NCBI GenBank assembly: GCA_947449765.1
Contig: CANFSP010000001.1
Coordinates: forward strand, 372,001-436,000
DNA length: 64,000 nucleotides
Reading direction: 5' to 3'
DNA from: Actinomycetota bacterium
GTDB taxonomy: Bacteria > Actinomycetota > Actinomycetes > Actinomycetales > Microbacteriaceae
Shown: piece by piece, positions 54,872 through 64,000 of the stretch
Layout: every line of letters begins with the position of its first letter
How positions within the stretch are numbered: the stretch's first letter is position 1
The notes under the pieces: generated by a model
Seen by the model: the letters and a program-made list of their open reading frames with translations, nothing else
Database searches by the model: none
Told to the model about the DNA's origin: nothing
Made by a program: the position numbers and the translations under genes

Positions 54872-54945
54872 CGCGGGGTGGAGCAGCTCGGTAGCTCGCT
54901 GGGCTCATAACCCAGAGGTCGTAGGTTCAAATCCTGCCCCCGCAA
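54872..54945 (+). tRNA. Initiator tRNA-fMet (CAT)
   Basis: The cloverleaf is clear: acceptor CGCGGGG/CCCCGCA, D arm GAGCAGCTCGGTAGCTC, anticodon stem CTGGG-CTCATAA-CCCAG, and T arm GTAGG-TTCAAAT-CCTGC. The first base pair is C1·A72, a mark of bacterial initiator tRNA, and three G-C pairs close the anticodon stem. CCA is not encoded. A terminator hairpin follows at once. Confidence 0.95.
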
Positions 54946-54947
54946 CA

Positions 54948-54985
54948 AAAGACGTAAGGCCCTCGAAAGAGGGTCTTACGTCTTT
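54948..54985 (+). terminator. Terminator after tRNA-fMet
   Basis: A 17-bp stem (one G-T pair) with a GAAA tetraloop, three bases after the tRNA end. The right arm ends in TCTTT. The remaining sequence to 55212 shows no gene. Confidence 0.85.
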
Positions 54986-55212
54986 AAGGCCGCCAGCGAT
55001 TGACCGCGACCAACTCCGCACATCGGCAACATCTGTGCCGGGGGCGTCGCACGCTATGCGTGTACCACGCGTGACCCCCATCCGGTCGGCTAGCTGGGCA
55101 TTGCCTCCACAAGGGGATCTCGGAGACCCGAAAAACAGCGGGCACTCAAAATAGACAGTTAGTCTAATCGCGCCGAGACTGGCTCGGTATCGATCTATGA
55201 AAGAGAACATCC

Positions 55213-56874
<1,662 letters not shown>

Positions 56875-56905
56875 ATAGATACGCCCTAAGCGTTAGCGCA
56901 ACGAA

Positions 56906-56946
56906 AATGTCGTCGGGGGTGGCTGTGAGCCACCCCCGACGACATT
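56906..56946. terminator. Bidirectional terminator between chitinase and surface-protein genes
   Basis: A perfect 19-bp stem (AATGTCGTCGGGGGTGGCT and complement) with a three-base GTG loop, placed between two convergent genes. Confidence 0.85.
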
Positions 56947-56962
56947 AAGTACCGCGCGTTGC

Positions 56963-57874
56963 CTAGTTGGTGCGACGCCTGCGAGCGATGAGCCCAGCAG
57001 CAAAGGCCATTCCACCAGCTAAGACTGCTGAAGCGCCAACGAACGCCAGACCAGAGGGGAAGGGCTGACCCGTCGAGGGCAACGGTGACGGAGCGGGATC
57101 CGGTGTCACCGTGGCAGCCCAGCGAAGCACGACGAGACCGTCGACACCATCAGCGGGAACGATGTCGTTGCCGATGCTGCCACCATTACCGGCGATTTGG
57201 GCTGTCGTTACGACGGACGTATCTGAACAACTTCCGCCGGTCGCGTAGGCCTGGGTGTCGTCACCCGGGAAAAGTGTGCTGTCGGTTGCAATGTCGTCGA
57301 GTGTGACGCCCGCACCGGCAACGCACACGCTACCGTCGGCGCCAGCGCCAGCGCCGGCTCCATACGACCATCCATCAACTGAGCTGTCCCAGTAGGCTGC
57401 GCCGGTGAAGTCAGCGTTTGATCCCCCGCCGTAGCCTGAAAAACCTGCGCCTCCGCCGAGAGCGGCATCGAGGTTGACCGACGAAGCTTCACCATCGGTT
57501 GGAGTTTCGCCTCCAATACCGTGTGCCCCAACGATGACATCGATGTTGGCCGAAGTGTCAACGCTGTCAACGTAAACGGCCACGCCTGATGCGGCACCGT
57601 AAGCCTCGTAACTGTTGCCGAGAGCTCCACCACCGGCACCGATGACGACGGCAGCGAGCTTGCTCACGCCACTCGGCGCGGTGAAGCTGTACGAGCCGGC
57701 GGTGTCAAAGCGCACCTCACAAATGGTTCCGTTGATGACGGTGGCGGTGGGTGTGGTCGTTCCACAATCGACGGCAGCATTGGCGGCGGGTGCGGTGAGG
57801 GCGAACGGCGCGACGAGGAGTCCAGCGCCTGCACCGATGGCACTTGCGCGCACGGCAGTTCGAGTGAGGGTCAT
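56963..57874 (-). CDS. Gly-rich cell-wall-anchored surface protein (LPSTG)
   Basis: The 303-residue protein has a signal peptide (ANA cut near residue 33), a Gly/Ala/Asp-rich extracellular region, a Pro-rich spacer, and a sortase-type end: LPSTG at 265-269, a hydrophobic span, then RRRRTN. This is a standard wall-sorting signal. The Gly-rich region has patches such as GGGAGFSGYGGG. No enzymatic motif. A sortase gene is not in the window. The ATG start has AAAGG upstream. Confidence 0.8.
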   Translation of the reverse strand: MTLTRTAVRASAIGAGAGLLVAPFALTAPAANAAVDCGTTTPTATVINGTICEVRFDTAGSYSFTAPSGVSKLAAVVIGAGGGALGNSYEAYGAASGVAVYVDSVDTSANIDVIVGAHGIGGETPTDGEASSVNLDAALGGGAGFSGYGGGSNADFTGAAYWDSSVDGWSYGAGAGAGADGSVCVAGAGVTLDDIATDSTLFPGDDTQAYATGGSCSDTSVVTTAQIAGNGGSIGNDIVPADGVDGLVVLRWAATVTPDPAPSPLPSTGQPFPSGLAFVGASAVLAGGMAFAAGLIARRRRTN

Positions 57875-57996
57875 GGCAGAGCCTTTCGTAAAAGCAACAG
57901 TGCCATCAGAGTACTAGAACTGCGGTCAAAAAAGTGGATGCAGTTTCACGCAAAAGACATGCATCCTCGTTACTCAACCAGCGAGCGCGCGAGGCC

Positions 57997-58557
57997 TTAG
58001 CTCAGGGCAGCAGAGATTCCGTAGATCACCGTGCTGATGGAGCCGTCATCCTCAATCCAGATGGACAAGAAGTTGTCGGCGTCGGAGATGAACTGCAGGC
58101 TGCCGTCGGGGAAGTACTTGGTCCAGGGGCCGTCTTTCCACGTCTGAACTGTTGTGGGGTCGACGGTGTACCACTTCTGGCCGACCATGCGCGGCGAGAG
58201 TTGGGCGACGAGTTCGTCGGGCGTCGACGTCCAGATCGGGGCGTCGCTCGCGAACTTGACCGAGTGAACCGGGTTAGTCATGTACTGGGCGAGCTCGTCC
58301 GGGTGCACGGTGAGAACCGCGTCGGTGATTTTGGCGATCTTTTCGTCGCGGCTGAGTGCGGTGGGGGTTGGTGTCGGGGTCGCCGACTGGGTCGCCGACT
58401 GGGTGGGCGAGGGGCTTGAGGTTGGGGCCGGCGATGGGCCACCCTTGGCGAGAACGACAAAAACAATGGCGGCTAAGACAGCAACGAGGGCAATCAAACC
58501 GACCACGAGCCACGCGGTGCCCGCTGGGGAAAGCCCCTTTTTCCCGGAAGAAGTCAT
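57997..58557 (-). CDS. Membrane-anchored protein with Ser/Thr/Pro linker, function unknown
   Basis: The 186-residue protein has a cytoplasmic stub, one span (about 15-38), a linker of Pro/Ser/Thr repeats (about 40-68) and a small extracellular domain (DEKIAKITDAVLTVHPDELAQY, later WTKYFPDGSLQFISDADNF). I do not recognise the domain. It lies 122 bases upstream of the LPSTG gene on the same strand. The ATG has no strong ribosome site. Confidence 0.6.
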   Translation of the reverse strand: MTSSGKKGLSPAGTAWLVVGLIALVAVLAAIVFVVLAKGGPSPAPTSSPSPTQSATQSATPTPTPTALSRDEKIAKITDAVLTVHPDELAQYMTNPVHSVKFASDAPIWTSTPDELVAQLSPRMVGQKWYTVDPTTVQTWKDGPWTKYFPDGSLQFISDADNFLSIWIEDDGSISTVIYGISAALS

Positions 58558-58630
58558 GGCTCAATTCTGGCAGTAAAGCAACCCAGCCATTCTTAATATT
58601 TGTCGAACGCTCGGTGTGAATGTGCCCGGC

Positions 58631-58636
58631 TAGGCT
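58631..58636 (+). promoter_or_regulatory. -10 box, leaderless promoter of MBL gene
   Basis: TAGGCT, six bases (GAAGCC), then ATG 58643. Confidence 0.6.
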
Positions 58637-58642
58637 GAAGCC

Positions 58643-60046
58643 ATGAGCAACGGGGAATCCTTGAGTAAGACCGCCGGTGGGCACGCAACACTTCAGTTTC
58701 TCGGAGCAACCGGCACAGTGACCGGGTCACGGTATCTGTTCGAGATCGGCGGTAAGCGCATCCTCGTTGATTGCGGCCTGTTTCAGGGGTACAAGGAGTT
58801 GCGCGATCGCAACTGGGAGGCGTTCGACGTGCCGCCCGACACCATCGACTTCGTGCTGCTGACGCACGCGCACCTCGATCACAGCGGGTACATTCCCGCG
58901 CTGGTGCGCGACGGGTTCCGCGGGCAGATCGTGGCCAGTGAGGGAACCGCCGAGCTGTGCTCGCTGCTGCTGCCGGATAGCGCGCACCTTCTCGAGGAGG
59001 AGGCGGAGCGGGCCGCGCGTAAGAAGTACAGCAAGCACGTGCATCCCAAGCCGATCTACACGACTGAGGATGCTGAACGCGCGCTGTCGCTGTTTCGCAC
59101 GGTGCGTTTTGATGAAGAGTACGAGGTGATGCCGGGCGTGAAGGCGACGTTCCTGCACGCGGGGCACATCCTCGGGGCGAGCCAGTTGCGCCTTTCGATT
59201 GGTGAGACCATCATCCACTTCACCGGCGACCTTGGCCGCGTCGACGACATGCTCATGATTCCGCCGGCACCTTTCGCCGGTGCCGACATTCTCATCACCG
59301 AGAGCACGTACGGTGACCGCGTCCACCCCGCCGTCGACGCCGAGGCGGAGCTCGAACCGATCCTGTCGCGCGTGCTCGGTCGCGGTGGCACGGTGGTGAT
59401 CCCGGCGTTCGCGGTGGGCCGGTCTCAAGCTCTCATGCTCATCGTGTCGCGGCTGATGAACGCGGGGCGCATCCCGCGCGTCCCGGTTTTTCTCAACTCA
59501 CCGATGGCTGTCTCAGCTACCGAGTTCTACGAACGCCACCGTGCCGAGCACAAGGTCGACATGGCCGAGTTCGAGGCGATGTATGACATCGCGCGCCTGG
59601 TGCGCACGGTCGACGAGTCGAAGGCGCTGAACGAGCGCAAGGAGGCGAAGATCATCATCGCGGCGAGTGGCATGATGACCGGTGGCCGGGTGCTGCACCA
59701 CGTGGTCGCGTTCGGTGAGGATCCGAAGAACGCCATCCTGCTGTCGGGTTATCAGGCCGGTGGTACGCGTGGTCGCAGTCTCGCGGAGGGCGCCGAGACG
59801 CTGCGCATTTTCGGGCGGGATGTGCCGATTCGCGCCGAGGTGGTGCAGCTCGAATCGATGTCGGCCCACGCTGACGCCCAGCAGATCGTCGAGTGGATGC
59901 GCACCGCACCCACCCCGCCCACTCAGGTGTACATCACCCACGGTGAGCCGGCCTCGTCGGATGCGCTTCGCTTCCGCATCCAGGACCAGCTGCGCTGGCC
60001 GGTGCGGGTTCCTCGCCCGGGTGAGACCGTCTCGGTCGTTAAGTAG
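58643..60046 (+). CDS. Metallo-beta-lactamase/beta-CASP nuclease-like protein
   Basis: This 467-residue protein of the MBL superfamily has a beta-CASP domain and a C-terminal RMMBL segment, as in CPSF-like RNA-processing nucleases. Metal motifs: THAHLDHSGYIPAL (HxHxDH), HAGHILGASQL and FTGDLGR. Beta-CASP features include STYGDRVHP, VVIPAFAVGRSQALM, ASGMMTGGRVLHH and the closing SAHADAQQIVEW. A role in RNA processing or turnover is likely by family. The NUDIX gene starts eight bases after the stop. Confidence 0.87.
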   Translation: MSNGESLSKTAGGHATLQFLGATGTVTGSRYLFEIGGKRILVDCGLFQGYKELRDRNWEAFDVPPDTIDFVLLTHAHLDHSGYIPALVRDGFRGQIVASEGTAELCSLLLPDSAHLLEEEAERAARKKYSKHVHPKPIYTTEDAERALSLFRTVRFDEEYEVMPGVKATFLHAGHILGASQLRLSIGETIIHFTGDLGRVDDMLMIPPAPFAGADILITESTYGDRVHPAVDAEAELEPILSRVLGRGGTVVIPAFAVGRSQALMLIVSRLMNAGRIPRVPVFLNSPMAVSATEFYERHRAEHKVDMAEFEAMYDIARLVRTVDESKALNERKEAKIIIAASGMMTGGRVLHHVVAFGEDPKNAILLSGYQAGGTRGRSLAEGAETLRIFGRDVPIRAEVVQLESMSAHADAQQIVEWMRTAPTPPTQVYITHGEPASSDALRFRIQDQLRWPVRVPRPGETVSVVK

Positions 60047-60054
60047 TCGACTCC

Positions 60055-60438
60055 ATGGCGCCAGTTCGAGTTGTCGCCGCAGTCATTGAGCGGGATGGCA
60101 AATTTCTGGCATGCCGCAGGGCGCCTCATAAATCCTTAGCCGGTTATTGGGAGTTCCCCGGTGGGAAAGTCGAAGCCGGGGAGACGGATGAGGCAGCTCT
60201 CACACGTGAGATTCGCGAAGAGCTGGACGTAAGCATCAAGGTTGGTGACTTCATCGGGACGTCTGCCAACGTGGCAGGCGAGGTAATGATTGATCTGGTT
60301 GCGTACCGGAGCGTGATCGTTGACGGAGTAATAGTCGCAAGTTCTGATCACGATCAATTGATGTGGCTCACGCCGATTGAATTCTCAAAACTTAATTGGT
60401 CCCCGGCGGATTTGCCAGTGCTCGAATTATTGTGCTGA
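60055..60438 (+). CDS. NUDIX pyrophosphohydrolase (MutT-like)
   Basis: The 127-residue hydrolase has the Nudix box GGKVEAGETDEAALTREIREELDV and the MutT-like opening PVRVVAAVIERDGKFLACRR. The segment YWEFPGGK supports nucleoside-triphosphate (for example 8-oxo-dGTP) clean-up. The substrate is unproven. It is eight bases from the MBL gene and 34 bases before the HNH gene. Its composition is intermediate between the GC-rich neighbours and the A+T-richer HNH gene. Confidence 0.8.
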   Translation: MAPVRVVAAVIERDGKFLACRRAPHKSLAGYWEFPGGKVEAGETDEAALTREIREELDVSIKVGDFIGTSANVAGEVMIDLVAYRSVIVDGVIVASSDHDQLMWLTPIEFSKLNWSPADLPVLELLC

Positions 60439-60444
60439 CTCGGC

Positions 60445-60450
60445 TAACCT
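60445..60450 (+). promoter_or_regulatory. Candidate -10 box of the HNH endonuclease gene
   Basis: TAACCT lies just before an AAGGGGG ribosome site and TTG 60473. It would give a short leader with its own initiation, separate from the NUDIX gene. Confidence 0.5.
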
Positions 60451-60472
60451 GGCAAAAGTTAAGGGGGAAATT

Positions 60473-61360
60473 TTGGCTTTTACTCAGGCAGAACAAGCGC
60501 TGATTCGTGAAGACATCTTTCGATGGCTTGATGAATTGCAACTAGCTGGCCAGTATGACTTTTCGCGCGAAGACCTTTCAAAATACACCTGGCGAGGCCA
60601 GAGTATTCGCCTAGTGGATCCTCAAGGTGGAATCTGGAACCCCAGGGATTTCGACACGACACTGTCCATTTTGACTACACCTAACGGGCCATATGACGAT
60701 AAGCCTGAGGATGGCATGTTCGTGAGGTACGCATACGCCAAGGCAGAAAAAGGAACAAATACAAAACTCAAACGGGCTTTCGTGACCCAAGAACCACTGA
60801 TTTATTTCGCTCCAAGCACTCGCTCGAATCGTTATGTGGCCCACTACCCTGTCTACGTCTCTCAAGACGATGAGGAAAACAGGGAAGTTGTGGTTGCCCT
60901 TGACGCACAATTCAAGTTGTTCGCTGACCCTCTTCAACTAGGTGCTGATGAGCGTGAATGGGCTGAACGAACAGTGATGGCTCGCGTTCATCAGCCGCTC
61001 TTTCGCGCAAAAGTCATGACGGCCTACGAAGAAACCTGCGCGATATGCAGTTTGAGGCACAAACAATTGCTCGATGCTGCGCACATCATTCCAGATTCGC
61101 ACGAACGAGGCGTGGCCCTTGTCACGAACGGGATCTCCCTCTGCAAGATTCACCATGCCGCTTACGATGGCAACTTCATTGGGATTTCCCCCGATTACAA
61201 GGTCGTCGTGAATTCTGAACTTCTTTTAGAAGTTGATGGTCCAATGCTGAAGCACGGGATCCAGGAGATGCACGGTCGGACACTTGTCCTTCCAAAAAAA
61301 GAAAACGAATGGCCCGAGAGAGAAAATTTGGCTTTTCGGTTTGAAACCTTCGCGGCTTGA
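60473..61360 (+). CDS. HNH endonuclease, putative restriction enzyme
   Basis: The 295-residue protein has an N-terminal domain of unknown function (about 1-155: GIWNPRDFDTTLSILTTPNGPYDD, then PLIYFAPSTRSNRYVAHYPVYV) and a C-terminal HNH domain. C189-C192 (CAIC) and C224/H227 (LCKIHH) could hold zinc. H204 (DAAHIIPD), N219 and H228 form the H-N-H core. This architecture is common among putative restriction endonucleases; the target is unknown. TTG 60473 with AAGGGGG upstream is preferred. The gene is visibly A+T-richer than its neighbours. Confidence 0.8.
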   Translation: MAFTQAEQALIREDIFRWLDELQLAGQYDFSREDLSKYTWRGQSIRLVDPQGGIWNPRDFDTTLSILTTPNGPYDDKPEDGMFVRYAYAKAEKGTNTKLKRAFVTQEPLIYFAPSTRSNRYVAHYPVYVSQDDEENREVVVALDAQFKLFADPLQLGADEREWAERTVMARVHQPLFRAKVMTAYEETCAICSLRHKQLLDAAHIIPDSHERGVALVTNGISLCKIHHAAYDGNFIGISPDYKVVVNSELLLEVDGPMLKHGIQEMHGRTLVLPKKENEWPERENLAFRFETFAA

Positions 61361-61361
61361 G

Positions 61362-63275
61362 TTAGCTGAGCTGCGAGATCAACCTACTTATCAACTCTTC
61401 GAAACGTTGTCTGCAGAAATCTATGTAGGCGTCCCGGTCTAGCCCGGGACTAATTTTGAGCTGCGAAATTTCAGGAGTGATCACATACTTTGAGAGCCGC
61501 TCAAATTCCTCTTCAGACGTTTCGACACCTGATTGGGCGAGATAATCTCCGAGCATGGTTTTTCCTTTGATCCTGTTGATTTCTTTCGGAAGCAAAGAAA
61601 GATTTCCTGTAGCGCTTATTGGCCACCCATCGTCGGGATCCTGACCGATAAGACCTTGTAACACATCGACGGGATACAAGTGCTCAAGGTCAAATTCATT
61701 GGCTTGATTGTCGAAGTGGCTCACGATTGGACTGTAGACAAACTTGAGCACAGCTCTCGTTTTGTCGTTTAAATTTGGGCGAAGTTTCTGTCGCTTGCCT
61801 AGTTGCTCATCATGCCAACTTGTTAGCGCCATGCGCCATCGTTCTGCTGGAATTGCTTGCAGATAGAAATCGGACTTAGCCTCAGCAAGGTTTCCCGGTT
61901 TCGGAGCTGTGCCTGACCAGCACATATTCCATAGGTGAGAATCACCGGAGCCGCGCCAAATCTCCCGAACCATGTCGTATAGGTAGTACGCGGGAATGTT
62001 TTTCTTGAGAATTTCCACCTCGTTAGAATTTGTCAATTCCCAAGTTGTGTAGTCGTACTTTGCGGTCATGTACCTCGTTATGAGGCTAATGATCTGGTTT
62101 TGGCTGTGTGGTAAGAATCTTGTCTTGCCGCCCTGGTTGTTTAGTTTCAACGAGAGATAGGGCCTGAGAAGATTTTCAACCTCGCCGCAAGAAACCAATA
62201 TCGATTTTTCAAGTTTGCTGAGATCCAGTGGGTTGCCAAGTTTCAATTCTCGAAGGTGAGTCGCCAGACTGTTCATGTCGTTGATTCGCAAACCCATAGC
62301 GACCGTTACGACATTGAAACCCACCGAGGTTGCCTCGTCGGGACTTCCTACTTCGGGGAACAGTATTGGGAAGTCGCTACAAAGGACGTGACCCAGCCCG
62401 AAAAGGTACTCATAAAGATTGAATTCGTCGTCCAGGCCTAACTTTTGTTCGTCAAAGCCGGAAACCTCATACCCTTCATCGATCAGCTGGAGATATTTAT
62501 TCCTAATGGCCTGGCGGATTTTATCGTTGTCGATCCTTGCCGAAAAGTTCATCCAACTTGCTGCGTAGATTTCATACTTGGTGAGCTTCGTACCTTGCGA
62601 ATTCACTCGCTGAAAAATTTCTGGGACATTACCCACATCGCCGCTGTAAACAACGATCGGGATGCGCACCTCTCGAATTGCTTGAACAGAATTGCGGATA
62701 TCGTCGAGGATGGCACTGACAGGCTGGCGAACCTGCTCGTAATTCACAACCTGATCTTCTTCAGTCTTCAATTTAGACAATGATTCGAAAAGCCCGTAGC
62801 CATCAAAACCCCGCGCCGCTTCGGTTGTCTCACAGGAACGCATCCACTCCTCGATAGCCTTCGTGATCGCTTCCTGAGTAGTGGTTTGCCAGTAGCCCTT
62901 GAGGATGTCTGAAATTTGATCGAGATTATCCGGATCGATCGATTCCCTAACCGGTGCGGTCAGGAGCGGAGCCTTAAGGAAGCTCAGGATTGTCGAGGTT
63001 CGTTGTAGTCCATCAACCAGCTCAATGACATCACGGTTGCGATGCTCAACCGTTTGATGTTTTTCTCCGGTTCGAAAGCAAAGCAGTGAACCTATTGGGT
63101 ACCCCAAGTAGATTGACTCGATAAGTTTTTCTTGTTGCACGGTTGACCATACGATCCCTCGTTGAAACTTTGGCACGCGAATGTAATCACCTGTAGCGCT
63201 GTCAGGACTCGCATAAGCCTGAAGCTCACCTAATGTGATGGTCTTCGTAGTTGAATCGTTTGCTCGATTTATCAA
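61362..63275 (-). CDS. GmrSD-type type IV restriction protein (DUF262-DUF1524 fusion)
   Basis: This 637-residue protein has an N-terminal ParB-like DUF262 domain with PKFQRGIVW (35-43) and DGLQRTST (88-95), as in GmrS NTPases/nucleases. A C-terminal DUF1524 HNH-like nuclease has FDLEHLYP (H532), then GNLSLLPKEINRIKGKT. Such fusions cut modified DNA, for example of phages, in characterised cases; activity here is inferred. It converges with the HNH gene with one base between the stops. It is A+T-richer than the surrounding genes, which suggests transfer. Confidence 0.85.
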   Translation of the reverse strand: MINRANDSTTKTITLGELQAYASPDSATGDYIRVPKFQRGIVWSTVQQEKLIESIYLGYPIGSLLCFRTGEKHQTVEHRNRDVIELVDGLQRTSTILSFLKAPLLTAPVRESIDPDNLDQISDILKGYWQTTTQEAITKAIEEWMRSCETTEAARGFDGYGLFESLSKLKTEEDQVVNYEQVRQPVSAILDDIRNSVQAIREVRIPIVVYSGDVGNVPEIFQRVNSQGTKLTKYEIYAASWMNFSARIDNDKIRQAIRNKYLQLIDEGYEVSGFDEQKLGLDDEFNLYEYLFGLGHVLCSDFPILFPEVGSPDEATSVGFNVVTVAMGLRINDMNSLATHLRELKLGNPLDLSKLEKSILVSCGEVENLLRPYLSLKLNNQGGKTRFLPHSQNQIISLITRYMTAKYDYTTWELTNSNEVEILKKNIPAYYLYDMVREIWRGSGDSHLWNMCWSGTAPKPGNLAEAKSDFYLQAIPAERWRMALTSWHDEQLGKRQKLRPNLNDKTRAVLKFVYSPIVSHFDNQANEFDLEHLYPVDVLQGLIGQDPDDGWPISATGNLSLLPKEINRIKGKTMLGDYLAQSGVETSEEEFERLSKYVITPEISQLKISPGLDRDAYIDFCRQRFEELISRLISQLS

Positions 63276-63405
63276 AGCTGGGTCCCCTCGTGATCTCTTG
63301 ATTAGATCAGCTCCGAAGGATCAGATCAAATGCTCACAGGCTGGATAACCGCCGCCCCTTCAGGTTTAGGGCCTCTACGCCTATGACTCACCCAGCACAG
63401 CCTCA

Positions 63406-63411
63406 TAGACT
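63406..63411 (+). promoter_or_regulatory. -10 box, leaderless promoter of the last gene
   Basis: TAGACT, seven bases, then ATG 63419. Confidence 0.5.
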
Positions 63412-63418
63412 CGACCCC

Positions 63419-64000
63419 ATGAGTCGTGCACGAGTGAGCGCTGTTGTCGGGGCTGTGGCGGTAGCCGCATCCCTCTTTGTTATCGCACCATTGGGTGTGA
63501 GTGCCGCCTACGCGGCGACGTACACGCTGTACGGGACAGAGTTCGAAATACCCACCAATCAGCACACCATGATGAGTGCTCGGGTGGCGGCAAGTGCCGA
63601 CGGCACACGCGTGGCCATGATTACCTCGGTGAAGGGGGCGGCCGAGTGTGAGACGTCCATGGTGCCGGCGTTCGCGGTCGGTGTCACCACCTCGAACAGC
63701 ACGATTTGGAGCGACCCTCAGCTTCTGCCGGCCAACACGGGCATCGCGTGCGAGACCTTCACTGACTGGAACGTTGCGCTCAGCGATGACGGCACCCGCG
63801 GATTACTCACCTGGCGCTCGAGCTCGGGCTTCAGCTACGCGGTGTTCAACTGGGGTCTCACCGAGGAGCGCCCCGCAGATCCGTCGGTCTATTCCAAGAA
63901 TTTCACGATGGATAACATCAACTCTCTGTCGTACTCGGCCGCCATGTCGGGTGACGGCTCGCGTGCCATCATCGGTCTTGCCAAGGTTGCGGAGGGTTCC
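63419..64000 (+). CDS. Secreted repeat protein, truncated at window edge
   Basis: The open frame from ATG 63419 runs to the window end without a stop (194 residues seen). It begins with a signal peptide (hydrophobic stretch about 8-30, cut near AYA). It then shows a recurring block ending in SADGTRVAMI, SDDGTRGLLTW and SGDGSRAIIG, spaced about 55-65 residues. This spacing and SxDGxR motif suggest beta-propeller (PD40/WD40-like) blades. Two cysteines (CETS, CETF) may pair. Role unknown; possibly surface binding. Confidence 0.7.
   Translation, partial: MSRARVSAVVGAVAVAASLFVIAPLGVSAAYAATYTLYGTEFEIPTNQHTMMSARVAASADGTRVAMITSVKGAAECETSMVPAFAVGVTTSNSTIWSDPQLLPANTGIACETFTDWNVALSDDGTRGLLTWRSSSGFSYAVFNWGLTEERPADPSVYSKNFTMDNINSLSYSAAMSGDGSRAIIGLAKVAEGS

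What the first reader, a model, noticed from the sequence alone, without database searches (positions are those of the whole stretch)
60055..63275. A+T-richer HNH endonuclease plus GmrSD-type pair: likely acquired defence module
HNH (60473) and DUF262-DUF1524 (61362) differ visibly in base composition from the GC-rich genes on both sides, and both look like restriction enzymes. They converge with one base between stops, and a NUDIX hydrolase lies just upstream. A two-nuclease module lacking any methyltransferase fits type IV-like defence against modified DNA. Whether the HNH protein works with the GmrSD protein appears not to have been described, to my knowledge.
Basis: partly seen in the sequence, partly recalled or inferred. 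Interest (0 to 1): 0.65.

Follow-up and report, generated by a model that had tools for sequence, protein, structure and literature searches.

The report
Acquired modified-DNA restriction cassette with NUDIX
A small block of three foreign genes encodes two predicted DNA-cutting enzymes, one of which appears to carry a domain that reads chemically modified bases, plus a nucleotide-cleaning enzyme; the same kinds of gene sit together in distant bacteria, which suggests, but does not prove, that they work together against viruses with modified DNA.

Summary
NUDIX (60055-60438+), HNH (60473-61360+) and a GmrSD-type gene (61362-63275-) form one block with GC 48-54% against about 61% (GC3 .51-.56 against .72). 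It is absent from the syntenic locus of a sister species, which carries an Eco47II-like R-M system there; the variable region begins at a tRNA-Met gene. The HNH protein's N-terminus has no Pfam match, but its predicted fold matches SRA-HNH enzymes (TagI, VcaM4I), with both pocket tyrosines at the right spacing and the HNH catalytic residues conserved: a modification-dependent (type IV) nuclease by prediction. GmrSD-type genes adjoin only 8 of about 122 HNH homologues, in all orientations. The NUDIX gene belongs to the block: NUDIX-HNH tandems recur in three lineages, and 10 of 13 SauUSI-like (SRA-reader) genes in the family have the same NUDIX subfamily directly upstream. The best relative of the GmrSD protein, in another class of the phylum, sits beside a SauUSI-like gene and a NUDIX gene, so the trio recurs with the nuclease swapped. 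The substrate is unknown; the host's own C5 methyltransferase argues against general 5mC cutting. Nothing was tested on phage. New variant of a known kind.

The parts
60055..60438 (+). NUDIX hydrolase, NudG/CTP-pyrophosphohydrolase-like, Nudix box GKVEAGETDEAALTREIREEL
   Evidence: PF00293 4e-18; PADLOC PDC-S07 139 bits; best solved relative CTP pyrophosphohydrolase 2rrk 9e-24; Nudix box
60462..60475 (+). Shine-Dalgarno-like AGGGGG and TTG start of the HNH gene
   Evidence: read from the sequence
60473..61360 (+). SRA-like reader plus HNH endonuclease, predicted modification-dependent
   Evidence: PF13391; AlphaFold2 pLDDT 84.9; Foldseek TagI 5.8e-8, VcaM4I 2.8e-4; hhalign to an SRA-HNH protein 3e-6
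60692..60730 (+). putative base-flipping pocket loop Y73-D-D75...Y85 (Tyr-Tyr spacing 12 as in TagI Tyr55/Tyr67)
   Evidence: invariant Y73 and Y85 in 66 homologues, D75 in at least 90%; TagI pocket residues (PMC6212794); the loop has low pLDDT
61037..61183 (+). HNH nuclease core: C188xxC191, H203, N218, C223xxH226, H227, D231
   Evidence: Pfam 188-236; correspondence with TagI C210/C213/H229/N245/C250/H254/D258
61362..63275 (-). GmrSD-type (DUF262 - DUF1524-like) protein, 637 aa
   Evidence: PF03235 8e-27; 30% identity over 32-636 to the G656 homologue, 3e-85
63000..63014 (-). DGLQR, variant of the GmrS DGQQR motif
   Evidence: motif definition in PMC4619093; DGLQR also in the G656 homologue
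61563..61694 (-). GmrD-type His-Me finger motif EHLYP ... GNLSLLPKEIN (E531, H532, N558, N567)
   Evidence: motif definition in PMC4619093
54872..54946 (+). tRNA-Met at the left end of the variable region that holds the block
   Evidence: synteny with the sister species ends at 54964

Best explanation
A horizontally acquired cassette for restriction of modified DNA, inserted directly behind a beta-CASP gene inside a tRNA-Met-anchored variable region. The HNH protein is predicted to flip a modified base into an SRA-like pocket and to cut nearby with its HNH domain, without a methyltransferase (type IV logic). The GmrSD-type protein is predicted to be a second, NTP-dependent nuclease arm that probably reads other modifications, so that the two broaden coverage. 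The NUDIX enzyme, probably made from the same message as HNH, most likely clears modified pyrimidine dNTPs, either to keep modified bases out of the host's own DNA (self-protection) or to deprive the phage. Shown: sequence families, foreign composition, locus variability, recurrent neighbourhoods. Predicted from models: the SRA fold and pocket. Inferred: substrates, cooperation and the role of NUDIX. My split confidence: HNH is modification-dependent 0.75; NUDIX is functionally tied to it 0.5; GmrSD physically cooperates with HNH 0.2.
For: Composition; sister species lack the block and one holds an Eco47II-like R-M in the same interval. Best fold matches are the SRA-HNH enzymes TagI and VcaM4I, then the SRA protein SUVH6 and SauUSI, with AspBHI and AbaSI weaker; collinear hhalign to a true SRA-HNH protein, E 3.2e-6; pocket and catalytic residues. 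NUDIX-HNH tandems in Dietzia and a Propionibacteriales genome. 10 of 13 DUF3427 (SauUSI-type) genes have this NUDIX subfamily directly upstream on the same strand; DUF3427 is the C-terminal, SRA-bearing region of SauUSI. G656: NUDIX, SauUSI-like gene and the closest GmrSD relative side by side. G436: GmrSD relative 18 bp from a relative of the HNH protein. NudG, a characterised NUDIX relative, prefers 5-methyl-dCTP (PMC5158307).
Against: No Pfam SRA hit in any of 66 homologues; TM-scores over the whole chain are low (0.3) and the pocket loop has low confidence. The acidic residue is at Tyr+2, not Tyr+3 as in TagI. The host has its own C5 methyltransferase with an NgoFVII-type enzyme, and two HNH homologues sit beside C5 methyltransferases next to DISARM-type helicase genes: hard to square with general 5mC cutting. 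Direct hhalign to a DUF3427 C-terminus failed. Most NUDIX genes of this subfamily are not beside a type IV gene, and most HNH homologues lack both partners. GmrSD relatives in G426 and G687 lie beside a large gene with a C5 methyltransferase part instead.
Confidence: 0.6

Rival explanations
1. Defence-hotspot coincidence: three independently working genes (solitary type IV HNH, solitary GmrSD-type enzyme, housekeeping-like NUDIX) gathered in one variable locus, with no cooperation.
For: HNH neighbours are varied defence genes (NERD-UvrD, ResIII, type I, type ISP, AspBHI); GmrSD adjacency needs at least 7 changes on the HNH tree; all orientations occur; the locus exchanges defence genes between species.
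Against: Close same-strand NUDIX-HNH spacing recurs (34, 44 and 109 bp); 10 of 13 NUDIX-DUF3427 adjacencies; the NUDIX + SRA-nuclease + GmrSD trio in G656.
Confidence: 0.35
2. The HNH protein is a type II-like enzyme that cuts unmodified DNA and is protected by a methyltransferase elsewhere.
For: Homologues beside C5 methyltransferases in G006, Dietzia maris and Georgenia; distant HNH_2 proteins in the family lie beside C5 methyltransferases; the host has a C5 methyltransferase.
Against: No methyltransferase in the block; only 3 of about 122 homologous loci have a detected adjacent C5 methyltransferase, two of them next to DISARM-type helicase genes; SRA-like reader with conserved pocket.
Confidence: 0.12
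3. The NUDIX gene is a housekeeping pool-cleaner caught up in the island and unrelated to restriction.
For: NUDIX of this subfamily is common in the family (about 46 of 200 genomes at E<1e-20) and mostly not beside a type IV gene; in genus g82 it is a stable gene flanking a hotspot.
Against: Its composition matches the island; recurrent association with SRA-reader nucleases of two classes.
Confidence: 0.35

Closest known systems
SRA-HNH modification-dependent endonucleases (TagI, VcaM4I, ScoA3IV)
   Same: SRA-like reader followed by HNH; pocket tyrosines 12 residues apart; CxxC + CxxH zinc pattern; AH...N...HH...D catalytic pattern
   Different: No Pfam SRA match; acidic pocket residue at Tyr+2; longer part after the HNH core; NUDIX encoded just upstream
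SauUSI (PLD-helicase-DUF3427/SRA) type IV enzymes
   Same: SRA-fold reader; the same NUDIX subfamily directly upstream in 10 of 13 cases in the family; GmrSD relative beside it in G656
   Different: Nuclease is PLD and ATP-driven, not HNH; no direct profile match of the readers
GmrSD / Eco94GmrSD type IV enzymes
   Same: GmrSD_N domain, QR and FxxxN motifs, EH-N-N nuclease motif in a single chain
   Different: DGLQR instead of DGQQR; C-terminal domain below Pfam detection; a divergent, rare subfamily
SBD-HNH phosphorothioate-dependent endonucleases (SprMcrA, EcoWI)
   Same: HNH and C-terminal part match NF045808 at 69.7 bits
   Different: Below its cut-off of 180 and no match over the sulfur-binding domain
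PADLOC candidate PDC-S07
   Same: The NUDIX protein matches it (139 bits)
   Different: I found no description of it as a partner of SRA-type nucleases

Membership tests
SRA-HNH modification-dependent endonuclease | C-terminal HNH (beta-beta-alpha-Me) with catalytic His/Asn/His and Zn pattern | tested here: met
   PF13391 in 66/66 homologues; residues invariant or nearly so and spaced much as in TagI
SRA-HNH modification-dependent endonuclease | N-terminal SRA fold | tested here: met
   Predicted fold only: Foldseek TagI 5.8e-8, SUVH6 SRA 1.9e-3; hhalign 3.2e-6 to an SRA-HNH protein
SRA-HNH modification-dependent endonuclease | Sequence match to the SRA family (PF02182); a detection aid rather than a strict requirement | tested here: not met
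   No hit at 0.01 in 66 members
SRA-HNH modification-dependent endonuclease | Two aromatic pocket residues and a carboxylate | tested here: inconclusive
   Y73 and Y85 at spacing 12 as in TagI; Asp at Tyr+2 rather than +3
SRA-HNH modification-dependent endonuclease | 5mC/5hmC-dependent cleavage | not testable with these tools
   needs enzyme assays
GmrSD type IV | GmrS domain (DUF262/PF03235) | tested here: met
   8e-27, 95 bits against cut-off 33
GmrSD type IV | DGQQR motif | tested here: inconclusive
   DGLQR, shared with the G656 homologue
GmrSD type IV | GmrD domain (DUF1524/PF07510) with EH-N-N | tested here: inconclusive
   No Pfam hit but EHLYP...GNLSLL...N present
GmrSD type IV | Cleavage of glucosylated 5hmC DNA | not testable with these tools
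   needs enzyme or phage assays
SBD-HNH (phosphorothioate-dependent) | Sulfur-binding domain | tested here: not met
   NF045808 matches only residues 168-287, 69.7 against cut-off 180
Type II restriction-modification | Cognate methyltransferase in the module | tested here: not met
   None in the block; the host C5 methyltransferase is on another contig with its own NgoFVII-like enzyme
SauUSI | PLD nuclease + helicase + DUF3427 | tested here: not met
   The window HNH protein has none of these by Pfam; G000 has no DUF3427 protein

The most novel reading that the evidence does not exclude
NUDIX + SRA-reader nuclease + GmrSD-type protein is one recurrent modification-dependent defence system whose nuclease can be swapped (HNH or PLD-helicase), in which the NUDIX enzyme polices modified dNTPs so that the nuclease attacks phage DNA and not the host's.
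Probability: 0.22. Interest if true: 0.75.

Novelty: new variant of a known kind. Interest (0 to 1): 0.5.

Why it matters
Type IV enzymes destroy modified DNA and need some way to tolerate stray modified bases in the host's own genome; a dNTP-cleaning partner would be a simple answer and is directly testable. The finding extends SRA-type readers to a widespread actinobacterial HNH family (33 of 396 genomes sampled across the phylum) that Pfam sees only as HNH_2, and links an unexplained defence candidate (PDC-S07 NUDIX) to SauUSI-type and SRA-HNH-type restriction.

Tried and rejected
Fixed HNH-GmrSD operon: rejected, because adjacency is recurrent but rare and varied. The first HNH tree was wrong: seven rows were translated from the wrong strand; redone. 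C5 methyltransferase avoidance by HNH carriers: 6 of 20 against 84 of 180 genomes, no clear difference. Phage or plasmid carriage: no close relative of the block. Direct hhalign of the HNH reader to a DUF3427 C-terminus: no match. Flanking direct repeats that would mark an insertion: only short chance-like ones. The GmrSD structure was not predicted, for lack of an admissible alignment.

Full report
What is there. The window is G000:C1:372001-436000 of a 1.97 Mb genome. Three genes, NUDIX 60055-60438+, HNH 60473-61360+ and a GmrSD-type gene 61362-63275-, have GC 0.54, 0.50 and 0.48 and GC3 .56.51 and .53, while other window genes have GC3 .724 +- .038. Their codon usage lies about 7 sd from the window mean; the beta-CASP gene before and the gene after are normal. 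HNH and GmrSD stops are one base apart. NUDIX and HNH are 34 bp apart on one strand, with AGGGGG before the TTG of HNH.

Where it sits. Flanking DNA is syntenic with same-genus G046 up to window 54964 and again from G000:C1:438258. The left break is at a tRNA-Met gene (54872-54946). Between the breaks G046 has an Eco47II-like endonuclease and a C5 methyltransferase, and a fragment matching 25 residues of the beta-CASP N-terminus. G117's contig ends at the same junction, and another of its contigs carries an HNH homologue next to a GmrSD-type gene. Only three genomes of the genus were available.

The HNH protein. Pfam sees only HNH_2. An alignment of 66 homologues gave an AlphaFold2 model (pLDDT 84.9, pTM 0.65). 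Its three best PDB matches are SRA-HNH enzymes (TagI 6ghs, E 5.8e-8, probability 1.00; VcaM4I 6yex, two chains), followed by SUVH6 (SRA) and SauUSI and, weaker, AspBHI and AbaSI. hhalign aligns the family collinearly with a true SRA-HNH protein that has PF02182 at 140 bits. TagI binds the flipped base between Tyr55 and Tyr67 with Asp58 (PMC6212794); the family keeps Tyr73 and Tyr85 at the same spacing of 12, with Asp75 at +2. The nuclease residues match TagI one for one: C188xxC191, AH203, N218, C223xxH226, H227, D231. TM-scores over the whole chain are low, perhaps because the domains are oriented differently, and the pocket loop has low confidence, so the SRA assignment is a strong prediction, not a demonstration.

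Substrate. The host has a C5 methyltransferase with an NgoFVII-like endonuclease on contig C2. Homologues in G006 and Dietzia maris lie beside C5 methyltransferases, next to genes that match DISARM DrmD and DrmA. A nuclease cutting every 5mC would be suicidal there. A sequence-limited, 5hmC-preferring or other specificity is more likely.

Partners of the HNH family. About 122 homologous loci were examined: 80 from genome contigs, the rest from the family and phylum samples (the phylum loci carry only 1.5 kb flanks). Most have other neighbours. GmrSD-type genes adjoin 8: convergent, divergent and tandem, with at least 7 changes on the HNH tree. From the density of non-adjacent PF03235 hits I estimate roughly 0.1 expected by uniform chance (my estimate), but defence genes cluster, so this shows island membership more than a fixed pair. 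The NUDIX subfamily adjoins 5, four of them upstream in tandem (window, two Dietzia, one Propionibacteriales).

The NUDIX link. DUF3427 is the C-terminal region of SauUSI (PMC3874153), whose target recognition domain has the SRA fold and which cuts 5mC/5hmC DNA (PMC7913695). In 200 family genomes 13 have a DUF3427 protein, and 10 of these have this NUDIX subfamily immediately upstream on the same strand (coordinates: G064, G078, G136, G186, G042, G039, G073, G028, G027, G092; five of them read in full). One NUDIX subfamily is thus tied to two nuclease classes with an SRA-type reader. NudG, a characterised relative, prefers 5-methyl-dCTP (PMC5158307). Most NUDIX genes of the subfamily are not in such places, so the association runs from the nuclease to NUDIX rather than the reverse.

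The GmrSD protein. It is a rare subfamily: no full-length relative in 200 family genomes, and a few in the order of G436. The best, in G656 (30% identity over 32-636, E 3e-85, sharing DGLQR), lies directly behind a SauUSI-like gene, with a divergent NUDIX beyond it. In G436 the relative is 18 bp from a protein that aligns over most of its length with the HNH family (hhalign 3.9e-8) but has lost the HNH catalytic residues, and 118 bp from another HNH_2 protein. In G426 and G687 it adjoins a roughly 900-aa gene that, read by eye, looks like a Sau3AI/MutH-type endonuclease joined to a C5 methyltransferase; G436 has a similar gene nearby. So three of five are beside an SRA-type protein.

Interpretation. 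The block is best read as an acquired set of modification-dependent defence genes. Whether the three proteins cooperate is open. The NUDIX link is the most unexpected part; in the held library I found no paper that joins NUDIX with SauUSI or DUF3427 in this sense, which is a limited search. The self-protection idea for NUDIX is mine and untested.

Noticed in passing
window 54872-64000 and on to G000:C1:438258: A tRNA-Met-anchored variable region of about 11 kb; the sister species G046 carries an Eco47II-like R-M pair in the same interval (L116 8104-10176).
   Followed up: partly
L260 5264-7398 (G000:C2): The host's own C5 methyltransferase with an NgoFVII-type PLD endonuclease, flanked by a helicase-like gene and a 437-aa gene.
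   Followed up: partly
L265 4488-5627 (Sinorhizobium meliloti pSymB): A DUF3427-HNH_2 fusion: part of the SauUSI-type C-terminus joined directly to an HNH nuclease.
   Followed up: no
L120 and L121 (genus g82), also L095: A hotspot between RecQ/ComF and NUDIX that holds an HNH gene, a C5 methyltransferase with HNH, or a gene that looks like DUF262, by species.
   Followed up: partly
   Followed up: partly
window 58643-60046: A beta-CASP metallo-hydrolase of normal composition directly before the block; a 25-residue match to its start is found in G046.
   Followed up: no
L225 2518-3798 (Vibrio phage 10N.286.54.E5_PE002): A distant HNH homologue carried by a phage near its integrase gene.
   Followed up: no
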